Under the pieces are notes generated by a model. That model was not told the origin of the DNA. It saw only the letters and a list, made by a program, of their open reading frames with translations, and ran no database searches. Below, in pieces: positions 21,145-32,386 of a stretch of 64,000 nt of DNA. Origin of the DNA: Berberis thunbergii (taxonomy: Eukaryota; Streptophyta; Magnoliopsida; Ranunculales; Berberidaceae). The stretch is from positions 124,001-188,000 of the forward strand of contig QNQO01001153.1 in assembly GCA_003290165.1 (NCBI GenBank). Direction: 5' to 3'. The position numbers and the translations under genes are program-made. How positions within the stretch are numbered: position 1 is the first letter of the stretch; each line of letters opens with the position of its first letter.

Positions 21145-21569
21145 GGCTGCCACTACGCCGCATTAAAACAGATAGAGTGCTCCTAGATTCAGCTACATCC
21201 TGCAAAGCAGGCTGACCTAGTGCAAGGCTAAACGATGGTAGAGACATCATTTTTGAGTGGTACTGAAGCAATAAGTTCTTCAGCCCAGCGAGTCGAAAAG
21301 GTCATGGCAAACAAGAACACTCCCCCCCCCCTGAAACATAGATCTGCCCCTTTGCAAGGTTTGTTCCTCAGTAACCTATGTAATGCCTCAACAGTCCGCT
21401 AAATGATTCGCAAGAGCAACCTGAATTCCCTTCAAGGCCAAGATCAGTTTCTCTCCGCCGACAGTTAATTTTCTTTAAGTTTTTGTTTCCCTTTCCATAG
21501 TCAATATTGAGTTTTAGTTCTTAAAAGACTTGTGTGATTTGCAATCATTCACTGCACCAAAAATGGCCA

Positions 21570-21945
21570 TTAGCAACTGTTTTAAACCGTGGGGGTAACC
21601 CATTGGCACGACTTAGAACCGTGGGCTGTAGAGGCGACGCTAAATCCCTAGTAACGGCTAAAAACCATGGCTAAAATATTAGCAACGGTTTTATCTCGAG
21701 GACGGTTGATGATTTAGCCACGGTTATAAACTGTTGCAACAATCTTAGCCATGGTTCTAAGCCGTGGGCAGGAGTAGCCATGGCTTAAAATCGTTGCAAG
21801 TTTGGCCACGGTTGTAAGCCGTTGCAATAGCTTTAGCAACGATTTTAATCCGTGGCCAGTACTAGCCACAGTTATAAGCCGTGGCAAGGTAGCCACGGTT
21901 TTTACCCGTTGCAATAATTAGCCACGGTTTAAAACCGTGGCAAAT
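21570..21945. repeat. Left subterminal palindrome array of the CACTA element
   Basis: About ten degenerate copies of a ~21-bp near-palindrome (AGCCACGG-TTTTAA-ACCGTGGC) with short spacers. Nearest-neighbour distance is roughly 30-40 bp. Ends in a T run near 21947. Confidence 0.88.
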
Positions 21946-22164
21946 TTTTTTTTTTTTGCTGTCAAATGACTTTTTATTACATCTTATAAGTTTTATTTCT
22001 AGAAAATAAAATTTTAATGTGCCAAACTTAAACATTTCCATGAATGGAGGCAAAGTAATGTAATTAATAAGATAATGTATTACATTGAGTCACAAAATCT
22101 ATCAAATAGTATCTCAAATACAATAACACACACACAAACTTAAATATCTGAAATACAAAGAAAG

Positions 22165-22345
22165 TGGAACAATGCTGCTGCTACTGCGAGAGACGCAATG
22201 CTGCTGCTGCAAGGGATGATTTGTTGATGATGCGAGGTACACACTGCTGCTGCTGCTGTTGCTGCGAGGGATGAACTGTTGCTGTTGCGAAGGACGAACT
22301 GCTGCTCTGCGAGGGACGCACTGATGCGAGCTTGCTGCTGGTCGC
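22165..22345. repeat. Imperfect CTG/CAG trinucleotide tract
   Basis: GCTGCTGCT runs alternate with GCGAGGGA(C/T)GAACTG units, a low-complexity region. Open frames over it (Gln- or Ser-rich) are by-products of the repeat. Confidence 0.8.
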
Positions 22346-22349
22346 AAAC

Positions 22350-22887
22350 CAGAGTGCGCTCTGTTTCACTGCAGAGTACCCATTGTCCTAGCAGTTATGA
22401 TCTGCAGATTTTTAAATGCACTAATATTGTTGTTCTTATTACTAAATACTGACTGCTCGAGTACTGATGTAGTGGGTTTGCAGTCAAATGTACCAAATAA
22501 GTAACATAAAACTAGATCATGCCCTTGTTGCTTCTCAGACAACCTAAACTAGATTACACGCAAACTATTTCCTCCTGCAATATTTACACTAATCAAATGC
22601 AATCTATAGTGTTTGAATATGAAAGTTTGAGATACTGTTAACTCCACATTTCTGTAACACAAAATTTTAGCTCAAGAAAGGAATACGGGTGGCTCACGGG
22701 GTTTTGTGAGCGAGAGGAGAAGAAAGGAGGGCAGATTCATTTTGTTAGACAAGTGGAAGGTACAGACTCACAAACATTTTGAAGGAGGGGGTGTGAATAT
22801 GAAACCTCACTTATTTTGCTTGTTTGTCCTATCAGAGAAAATAGGAAGAACTTGTTCTCCAATCTTTGTTTAGAAGGTGCTCCTTAC
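22350..22887. other. CACTA interior without recognised gene
   Basis: No domain or known exon seen. It lies downstream of the presequence-protease fragment in that gene's direction; the next exon of that gene is not evident. Confidence 0.4.
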
Positions 22888-29339: not shown

Positions 29340-30560
29340 AACACATCACTGGCTATATAATTACTAAATTTGGAGGCAAACCATGTTGCTGACTTTGACT
29401 ACCATCACGTTTAAAAACTATTTTTTTTCTCCTAGGATAACAAAGTTTAATTAAGGAAACTAGTTTACTGAAAAAGAAACAAGGAAAGATATTTTCTCAA
29501 CTAGATAGAAATAACAAGAAATTCCAATCATGGAATACAAATTGTTGGATAATACTCTCAACTTATTTATCATTAAGTATGTGCTCCTTCCAAATGCTCC
29601 AACAGATTAATATAAACCAGAAACAAAAGACATTCACCATTTCAGCAATAAACATTGACAGGGCCTAATTTTGAGGACAAATGAACCTAAAAACTTATGA
29701 TATATCATATATATTTTGGACATCCATGATGCTGGAATATGCAGATGAGTATGGACTTGATATGGAAAAAGATATGAAAGTTGACATAATTTTATATTAT
29801 TTGAAAAAAGATACAGGTAAATTACAAAATGGCATTGCTTTCGTAAAGGGTTTTTGTCATTATCATAATGGAAACATTCGATCTTGAATCAAATATTTTA
29901 GTCCCACATTAGCAAGGAACTAGCGAAAAAATTGATAATGGTGACAAACAAAACGAGGTGGTTCTACAAACTGTTGAAACAGGACATAATTTGGACAAAT
30001 CATTATACCATTCAATTTTTGTTTAAGTATTGTACCTCATACATAGGTAAAAACAAACACAAGTTTTGTGTGCATCAGCGTGTGCACATGTATATAACAA
30101 CCATTATGCTGACATATAAACCAAAATCACAATTAGTGTTTGGATCAATCAAAGAAATGTGCCAGCAATATATAACAACCATCACTTATATATTGTATAT
30201 AATATTCTTACGTAAATGGTGGTTGATCAGAATATGCTCCCCCTATCATAAAGTGCTTATTTTTTGACAAGGGATTCTCATTTTCTCGCTCAAGTCCATT
30301 AATTCTCTTTTAAATGATTCTCTCAAGTCCATTATTTCTCTATATACTTTAGTTATTACATGATTCCCCCAGCTTGTTGTTAATAATGCCTGCAATGATA
30401 CATATATCTGAATAACTGGACTCTTATTGTGAGATAAAGAAGTACTAATATCTGAATATCATAATAAAGATGCAGTTCAACTCGCCTTCTTCCTTTCTTT
30501 TTATTGGCTGAGTAATTTAAAAAAAAACAGTGGTAAAAAAACATTTGGAAGATGTATCTC
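29340..30560. other. CACTA interior without recognised gene
   Basis: AT-rich sequence with short open frames lacking domains. The last exon expected for the gamma-glutamylcyclotransferase fragment was not found here. Confidence 0.4.
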
Positions 30561-30562
30561 AC

Positions 30563-31721
30563 CAATGTCAGACAATCCCTTCTCTAACATAAATAGGTAG
30601 TCTCTATTGTTCCCACATGGACCAGAAGCAGTGGCAATTTGTCTGAAAAGATCACGGCGAATCAGATGCTGAAAACCTGAAATCAGAATAAACAATCTAA
30701 GACATATACTAATTCCTAACTTACCTAGCCATTTCGTCCAATGGAGCAGGCCCTAAACAGTACTTGTTTGATACCTTGTCCGGAGTGGATGTGAATACCA
30801 TCACTCTTGTTACATCCGGTTCTAGGGCATCTTCATCCTGAATTTAGGAAAATCAGCTCCGAACAAGTACTTCATAAATCAATCAAAGAGTGAATTTGCA
30901 ACTACATACAAACTAAAGACATTGCTCACCTTGTAAAAGTTCACAACAGTCTTTTGGTCATACTCACATTCCCTTCTCTCCAAATACTACAAAAGCAAAA
31001 ACCAAAAATATAAGTTCGACTTCTAACAAAATTAATCTAAATGGATGCTGCTAAGGTGTATATGAAGATAAATACCTCCATAGCTAATCTTTCTTTTTCA
31101 GGCCCTCCAGTGACACTGAATGCAGCACCCCACTGAAATAATAAAGATTATAGGCAAAGTCAATAGCAGTAAACAAGTAGATGCCTTCAATCTGCAGTTA
31201 TTTAGTCATACTGTGATAGTGCTTAATACTTTGACGTCAAATGAGATCATTTTAAGGGAAACTAGTTCTTTCCAAAACTTCCCAACAAATAGGTTGAAAA
31301 AAATCATCAGGTTAGGTCATTGGTTTCTCTCAAATAATGTCAGCATTTCAAATTAAGTAGATGTCAAGACTCATGAACACATTTAAAAGTTCAAATTCAC
31401 TTACGCAAATTGACCCTTTGCTGGCCTCCAAAGTACAAGTTCTGGCTGGGTGTTCAGGGGTACCTCTATGATCAATGCAAGCTGAAACATGTATAAATTG
31501 GGAAAAAATGTAACCAATAACTCTCTTCAAAAAAATCCCCAAGAGTATATCTGATCTTATGATATGAAATGAAAAACATTAATTGACAACTTGAAATCAT
31601 ATATCAACTTACCACGATCAAAAACACGTTTGTAATCCTTAATGTAGCCTATGATTTTCTCATCAAAATCAAATCCTGGGTTCCACACCAATGAACCATA
31701 GCCAAAAACCCAAAAAATCAT
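30563..31721 (-). pseudogene. GGCT2: Gamma-glutamylcyclotransferase (ChaC/GGCT2-type) gene fragment captured in CACTA
   Basis: Six consecutive minus-strand exons: 31721-31613, 31481-31405, 31132-31076, 30986-30930, 30837-30725 and 30642-30563. All junctions are GT-AG and the frame stays open from the ATG at 31721 (about 164 residues). Exon 1 has WVFGYGSLVWNPGF, the glycine-rich substrate pocket of ChaC-like enzymes that split glutathione to 5-oxoproline and Cys-Gly. Then come CIDHRGTPEHPARTCTLE, GGPEKERLAME, YLERRECEYDQKTVV, VMVFTSTPDKVSNKY and ATASGPCGNNRDYLFMLEK. The catalytic Glu is expected in the GPEKE/ERRECEYD area, which is retained. The C-terminal exon (about 30 residues) is missing. 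It is the most complete captured gene; expression is unproven. Confidence 0.85.
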
Positions 31722-32024
31722 AATGTTTATTTGCCTGCTGAGATGTAAAAGCTCCAGTTAACATTGTATCCAACAATCGATCTCTCCTCTGCACTGCCGC
31801 CTCAATCGATCTCTCCTCTGCGCTGACTCGATCTCTCCTCTGCTCCTCGATCTTTCCTCTGCAATATGTTGAAAATTTTTGTCCCAATGACCGCCCAAAC
31901 ACTTTTCTAATCCCCAATTTTTTTTGCCAAAGCGGGAAACCAGTTTTCGCCAAAGCGGGAAGCCTCTTTTCGCCAAAGCGGGAAAGTCCTCCCTCCACAC
32001 ATACGGCCCACGTGCAAAACGCTA

Positions 32025-32350
32025 TTATTTAGCAACGGTTTTGAGCCGTAGCTCATTATAGCCACGGTTTTGAGCCGTGGCCATTTTTTTTAGCCACGGT
32101 TTTAAGCCGTTGGTGATTATAGCCACGGTTTTTAGCCGTGGCAAAGACACCAATGATTTTAAGTCGTGGCCATTGTTTTAGCCACGGTTTTAAACCGTTG
32201 GTAATTATAGCCACGGTTTTTGGCCGTGTCAAATAAACCAACGGTTTTTAGCCGTGGCCAGTTTTTTTGCCACGGTTTTAGGCCGTTGGTAATTATAGCC
32301 ACGATTTTAGGCTGTGGAAACTTAACCAATGGTTTAGAACCGTGGCCATC
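32025..32350. repeat. Right subterminal palindrome array of the CACTA element
   Basis: About ten copies of the same ~21-bp palindrome (AGCCACGGTTTTGAGCCGTGGCC and variants) as at the left end, stopping just before the terminal CACTA repeat at 32367-32383. Confidence 0.88.
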
Positions 32351-32386
32351 TCGTCGTGGCTAAACTGGCCTTTTGGTGTAGTGATT

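What the first reader, a model, noticed from the sequence alone, without database searches (positions are those of the whole stretch)
21550..32383. A CACTA transposon holding fragments of at least four unrelated host genes, all on one strand
Inside exact CACTA ends and an ATT duplication lie, on the minus strand, six exons of a gamma-glutamylcyclotransferase, two exons of a CHR12-type remodeller, three of ATM and three of presequence protease. Introns and splice sites are kept. Multi-gene capture with a common strand suggests serial capture or selection for a read-through chimeric transcript, a CACTA parallel to Pack-MULEs.
Basis: partly seen in the sequence, partly recalled or inferred. Interest (0 to 1): 0.88.

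Follow-up and report, generated by a model that had tools for sequence, protein, structure and literature searches.

The report
Gene-collecting CACTA jumping gene family
A plant jumping gene of the CACTA type, present in many copies in this genome, carries pieces of five unrelated plant genes that all face the same way; the pieces were likely picked up one after another and are likely passive cargo rather than a working new gene.

Summary
In detail: window 21550-32383 is a 10,834-bp non-autonomous CACTA element with an ATT target duplication. It carries minus-strand exons of a gamma-glutamylcyclotransferase (GGCT), a CHR12-type SNF2 remodeller, ATM and presequence protease (PreP). The left terminus reads CACTG; relatives have CACTAC.

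The window's genome shows a mobile multi-copy family. All eight distinct sites with both ends found have matching 3-bp duplications. The PreP parent was found: the captured 782 bp match it at 96%, introns included. Relatives share some modules and carry others instead (longer SNF2, ABCB, RRM, WD40, glyoxylate-reductase-like, proteasome). Capture was therefore stepwise. Every above-cutoff Pfam gene in the six-frame scans (7 of 7, from four elements) lies on one strand (two-sided p=0.016).

Across ten copies, GGCT changes match neutral expectation (10 silent, 33 replacement; expected 10.4 and 30.2), so selection for a chimeric protein is not supported. Multi-gene CACTA capture is known (soybean Tgm-Express1, maize Pack-CACTA). 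The uniform strand across separate captures is the part worth following. RNA was not testable here.

The parts
21550..32383 (.). Complete non-autonomous CACTA element, TSD ATT (21547-21549 and 32384-32386)
21550..21944 (.). Left terminus (CACTGCACC) and subterminal TAGCCACGGTTTTAA-type repeats
32029..32383 (.). Right subterminal repeats and terminus (reverse complement begins CACTACACC)
30563..31721 (-). GGCT (ChaC family) fragment: start codon and six exons 31721-31613, 31481-31405, 31132-31076, 30986-30930, 30837-30725, 30642-30563; the C-terminal part that relatives have was not seen by eye (not searched for)
28498..29300 (-). CHR12-type remodeller fragment: exons 29300-29236 and 28692-28498
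   Evidence: identity through L034 SNF2 domain
28037..28298 (-). Unidentified exon-like pieces X1 28298-28246 and X2 28150-28037; X2 has a stop in each of three frames in all ten copies
   Evidence: (no homologue)
27714..27836 (-). OSCA/CSC1 channel exon fragment
23835..26593 (-). ATM module (exons 26665-26484 in part, 24319-24179, 24079-24023); limits taken from L035
24540..25948 (.). Nested hAT-type element (8-bp duplication CGTGCTGG; superfamily by recall), only in this copy and its allele among ten; holds an exon-like SET-type piece on + strand (by recall only)
   Evidence: no hit for the piece
23997..24015 (.). Site where four fetched sites (seven copies) and L033 carry about 1.37 kb more, with TATAAAA, ATG and a CXXS-thioredoxin-like first exon (by recall)
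   Evidence: no hit
22674..23455 (-). PreP fragment captured as one genomic piece with introns (exons 23453-23397, 23312-23149 frameshifted, 23069-22887)

Best explanation
This is a copy of a multi-copy non-autonomous CACTA (Pack-CACTA-type) transposon family whose host-gene pieces were likely captured one after another as genomic DNA and then multiplied with the element as cargo that evolves without detectable protein selection, likely moved by a transposase made elsewhere. Shown: the ends, the duplications at eight sites, many copies, modular differences between copies, the PreP parent with capture limits, kept introns, one shared strand, and neutral substitutions in GGCT. Inferred: the order of capture (GGCT before PreP), the trans-acting transposase, and the capture mechanism (re-mobilisation of neighbouring insertions, or template switching in repair). 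The shared strand is predicted to reflect a filter against fragments lying antisense to the element's own transcription; that step is untested.
For: Matching 3-bp duplications at 8 of 8 distinct sites with both ends found; at a ninth, C3714, the right end was not found. 24 matches over all 2,001 left-end bases, window and allele included, among 40 scored. For the GGCT region, 36 of 40 scored, window included, cover (nearly) all 1,221 bases, the 35 others at 97-98%; 279 first-look candidates. 195 candidates for the CHR12 region. Haplotype pairs are in the assembly, so loci are fewer. Modules: L029, L031 and L036 share q26432 rightwards (L036 as far as fetched) with another left part; L032 shares only GGCT besides the ends; L035 has the ATM module without PreP; L034 has a longer CHR12 piece plus ABCB and RRM. 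Order: all 9 copies chosen by the PreP-bearing left end hold GGCT, while the three complete elements chosen by GGCT (C623, C1553, C380) lack PreP. PreP parent C668 has Peptidase_M16_C, M16C_assoc and PreP_C and differs from the majority of six copies at 17 of 783 sites. No transposase domain in six frames. Neutral GGCT.
Against: No autonomous partner was sought. Parents of GGCT, CHR12, OSCA and ATM were not located because the genome search was mostly unavailable. Zero stops were seen in GGCT where 2.4 were expected (P=0.075). Six GGCT exons join two CHR12 exons in frame, though phase matches by chance one time in three. Loss of PreP instead of later gain is not excluded.
Confidence: 0.9

Rival explanations
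1. The fragments are kept by selection for a spliced chimeric transcript that makes a useful fusion protein, most plausibly GGCT joined to CHR12.
For: Open 251-codon joined frame in the window; 7 of 8 copies tested, haplotype pairs included (C338 and C5591 not tested), stay open through the CHR12 exons present. Most splice dinucleotides kept. No stop in GGCT, P=0.075.
Against: 10 silent and 33 replacement changes across ten copies, against 10.4 and 30.2 expected. Pooled pN/pS 0.85, introns diverge similarly. Frame-breaking indels in C3714, L030, L031 and L032, and in C5591. Acceptors lost before a CHR12 exon in C71 and an ATM exon in C215. The longer joined frame stops at codon 182-301 in all 8.
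Confidence: 0.07
2. The common strand is chance, or an artefact of where the genes happened to be.
For: Five genes in one element agree by chance one time in sixteen. The sample not chosen by eye is small: 7 genes above the Pfam cut-off, assumed independent.
Against: 7 of 7 above-cut-off genes, from four elements (window, L032, L033, L034), on one strand, p=0.016 two-sided; the L033 scan was made after the pattern was noted and agreed. No opposite-strand hit at E<=0.5 in the window or E<=0.1 in the others.
Confidence: 0.3
3. All genes were taken in one event, or the window is an ordinary gene cluster with CACTA ends by accident.
For: The five genes sit together in the window and the nine copies fetched by its left end.
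Against: Related elements hold sub-sets and other genes between the same ends; the PreP parent stretch gave PreP domains only on the strand scanned.
Confidence: 0.01

Closest known systems
Tgm-Express1, soybean wp allele (PMC1947982; parts 1 and 2 of 5 read)
   Same: CACTA ends, non-autonomous, pieces of five unrelated host genes with introns and canonical splice sites; chimeric spliced transcripts shown
   Different: 5.7 kb insertion in a gene intron; here a multi-copy family with modular variants, a mapped parent and no RNA evidence
Pack-CACTA of Arabidopsis and maize (PMC8903248 passages; PMC13317346 passages; Catoni 2019 not held, only cited there)
   Same: CACTA ends with captured genic DNA; [quoted passage not shown]
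   Different: Strand agreement of many separate captures is not mentioned in the passages seen
Maize Helitrons with stepwise capture (PMC3288121 passages)
   Same: Related copies with different sets of captured fragments, read as stepwise capture
   Different: Helitron ends and replication; here TIRs and 3-bp duplications
Captured genes in Chenopodium CACTA (PMC8978399 passages)
   Same: Host gene pieces inside CACTA elements with subterminal repeats
   Different: Those lie upstream of the element's own coding sequence; here no transposase remains

Membership tests
CACTA (En/Spm) superfamily | CACTA terminal inverted repeats | tested here: met
   Right end CACTACACC; left end CACTGCACC in this copy and its allele, CACTACAC in the eight other copies
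CACTA (En/Spm) superfamily | 3-bp target site duplication | tested here: met
   8 of 8 sites with both ends found
CACTA (En/Spm) superfamily | Subterminal repeats several hundred bases long | tested here: met
CACTA (En/Spm) superfamily | Mobilised by a CACTA transposase | not tested
   no transposase in the element; partner not sought
Pack-CACTA | Non-autonomous, carries host coding DNA | tested here: met
Pack-CACTA | Captured DNA has a parental locus elsewhere | tested here: met
   PreP parent C668; C8696 identical over the matched 784 bases; other parents not found or not searched
Pack-CACTA | Several copies in the genome | tested here: met
Pack-MULE | Long MULE TIRs with 9-bp duplication (by recall) | tested here: not met
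   3-bp duplications, CACTA ends
Chimeric host gene under protein selection | Fewer replacement changes than neutral | tested here: not met

The most novel reading that the evidence does not exclude
This CACTA family takes up or keeps host gene fragments in one orientation only, relative to its two ends, through at least seven and likely ten separate captures. That would be a strand-directed gene-collecting transposon, in which sense-oriented exons build a growing chain of spliceable cassettes and antisense captures are weeded out or never made.
Probability: 0.45. Interest if true: 0.68.

Novelty: new member of a known kind. Interest (0 to 1): 0.5.

Why it matters
How DNA transposons pick up genes is unsettled. 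A family of closely related copies (about 1-3% apart in the captured genes) with different module sets, a mapped parent and exact capture limits lets the order, size and junctions of captures be read directly. If the strand rule holds over the whole family, it separates models: capture by random neighbouring insertions predicts both strands equally, while transcription-linked capture or removal of antisense cargo predicts one.

Tried and rejected
Protein search for the X1/X2 pieces: 10 candidates, none at E<=10. Protein search for the second CHR12 exon: 9 candidates, none at E<=1; the assignment was later settled through copy L034. NCBIfam and PDB gave nothing for the SET-like piece in the hAT, nor PDB and Pfam for the thioredoxin-like exon; both names are from recall, as are CHR12, nucleolin, HOS15, CXXS and glyoxylate reductase as finer labels. 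PDB scan of one minus frame of the element: no hit. I first doubted the strand argument because five genes agree one time in sixteen; the related elements changed that. Residues of the window GGCT at strongly conserved columns: 4 of 96 differ, where 119 relatives have median 1, 95th percentile 3 and maximum 6 (P0001 was dropped there as internally duplicated); a weak sign of relaxed constraint. A first idea that GGCT is oldest because it is in every relative was dropped: those relatives were chosen by a GGCT search. Literature searches for orientation of captured fragments gave no such statement for CACTA in what I saw; that is not proof that none exists.
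Full report
What is there. Window 21550-32383 is flanked by ATT on both sides and has inverted CACTA-type ends and dense subterminal repeats. No Pfam transposase was found in any of six frames.

Gene pieces. On the minus strand, from right to left, lie six GGCT exons with the start codon (ChaC 1.1e-41; plant relatives up to 82% identical); two CHR12 exons; an unidentified exon-like pair; an OSCA/CSC1 exon (PHM7_cyt above cut-off; 1.7e-12 to structure 6oce); three ATM exons (1.8e-5; first 40 residues of the joined query unsupported); and three PreP exons (2.5e-65). 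GT-AG borders are kept in most copies, with some losses. CHR12 was not confirmed by direct search. Copy L034 continues the same gene into an SNF2-related domain at 4.8e-39, which settles the family; the finer name CHR12 is from recall.

A nested element. 24540-25948 is a hAT-type element with an 8-bp duplication, beside the ATM exons. It is missing from 8 of 9 other fetched copies and present in the allele, so it likely inserted after the family spread.

The family. The window lies in a 2.24-Gb unnamed assembly, a plant by its genes. Nine more copies were fetched. Of ten sequences with the window included, nine had both ends found and all nine have matching 3-bp duplications; for C3714 the right end was not found. 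The nine form five sites, four of them present as pairs that share flanks (98-99.6% over 2 kb on the right, 100% over 100 bases on the left), that is, likely both haplotypes. Three further related elements, C623, C1553 and C380, are also bounded by matching duplications TCA, TTG and TAT, C380 with one changed base in its right end. That gives eight distinct sites. For the GGCT region, 279 first-look candidates were found and 40 scored; 36, window included, cover (nearly) all 1,221 bases and four start at base 198. For the CHR12 region there were 195 candidates. These counts include haplotype pairs, use queries of different length and are not copy numbers.

Stepwise capture. L029, L031 and L036 share the right part (GGCT to the start of the ATM module; L036 as far as fetched) but have another left part; in L029 it holds a glyoxylate-reductase-like piece (NAD_binding_11, 2e-6, 28.5 bits against a cut-off of 30). 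L030 shares q25948 rightwards. L032 shares only the GGCT module besides the ends and adds a WD40 piece. L035 has the ATM module without PreP. L034 has a longer CHR12 piece plus an RRM piece and an ABCB piece. L033 has a proteasome-subunit piece. Copies C7432, C338, C71, C5591, C7812, C420a, C3714 and L033 carry about 1.37 kb more than the window beside the ATM exons. No single event explains this. That GGCT came before PreP is inferred: all nine copies chosen by the PreP-bearing left end hold GGCT, whereas the three complete elements chosen by GGCT lack PreP. Later loss of PreP is not excluded.

The parent of one piece. C668 holds a PreP gene with Peptidase_M16_C, M16C_assoc and PreP_C domains on one strand; C8696 is identical to it over the matched 784 bases and was not scanned further. 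The element matches them only over 22674-23455, at 96%, introns included. The majority sequence of six copies differs from the parent at 17 of 783 sites and from single copies at 2-12. Capture therefore likely came shortly before the spread. Changes in copies are rich in C-to-T and G-to-A (22 of 49), as in methylated elements.

Strand. In six-frame Pfam scans of the window element and of parts of L029, L032, L034 and L033, seven genes pass the curated cut-off: ChaC, PHM7_cyt and PreP_C (window), SNF2 and RRM_1 (L034), WD40 (L032) and proteasome (L033). All lie on the same strand relative to the ends; none lies on the other. Two-sided chance is 0.016 if captures are independent. Sub-cut-off matches (NAD_binding_11, NT-C2, PEX11, a second RRM) lie on that strand too. 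In L032 the opposite strand was scanned only over 2324-5733, which includes the WD40 piece; its second RRM lies outside that stretch. ATM, ABCB and the thioredoxin-like exon were found by reading the gene strand and are left out of the count. The SET-like piece of the nested hAT lies on the other strand but belongs to another element.

Is the chain a gene? GGCT exons run in frame into the CHR12 exons (251 codons in the window; 7 of 8 copies tested stay open). Against use as a protein: over ten copies there are 10 silent and 33 replacement changes, with 10.4 and 30.2 expected under neutrality. Known haplotype duplicates (C9894, C338, C5591, C7812) were left out, L033 fell out because it lacks part of the exons, and L029 and L031 have different flanks; L030's flank was not fetched. 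Introns diverge similarly, and frame-breaking indels occur in several copies. No stop was seen where 2.4 were expected (P=0.075); the copies taken were the best matches. RNA could not be tested.

Comparison. Multi-gene capture by a CACTA element with spliced chimeric transcripts was shown for soybean Tgm-Express1 (PMC1947982, parts 1 and 2 of 5 read). [quoted passage not shown] Stepwise capture is described for maize Helitrons (PMC3288121, passages). The element is therefore a new member of a known kind. I did not find a strand rule for CACTA capture in five literature searches, which cover open-licence papers only and of which I saw listings and passages.

Verdict. Serial capture is supported, selection for a chimeric protein is not, and the one-strand pattern now rests on several related elements and deserves a full census.

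Noticed in passing
window 24540-25948: Nested 1.4-kb hAT-type element with its own exon-like SET-type piece on the + strand (by recall), so possibly a Pack-hAT inside a Pack-CACTA; no database hit.
   Followed up: partly
L013/L014 (C7432), between q23996 and q24016: About 1.37 kb not in the window copy, with a TATAAAA box, an ATG and a thioredoxin-like first exon (by recall): looks like a captured promoter plus first exon on the common strand.
   Followed up: partly
window 31-7807: Two tandem raffinose synthase/Sip1-type genes (Raffinose_syn in five ORFs).
   Followed up: no
window 11297-11770: Retroelement remains (Integrase_H2C2).
   Followed up: no
window 28037-28298: Two exon-like pieces of no known family; L034 lacks the first.
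   Followed up: partly
L032 413-500; L034 about 577-726: Weak RRM (PABP-like by recall) and PEX11-like matches below cut-off, both on the common strand.
   Followed up: no
window 62928: Another GGTGTAGTG, possibly the end of a second CACTA element.
   Followed up: no
window 33980-34352 and 56508-57197: Tandem arrays with units of about 128 and 125-147 bp.
   Followed up: no
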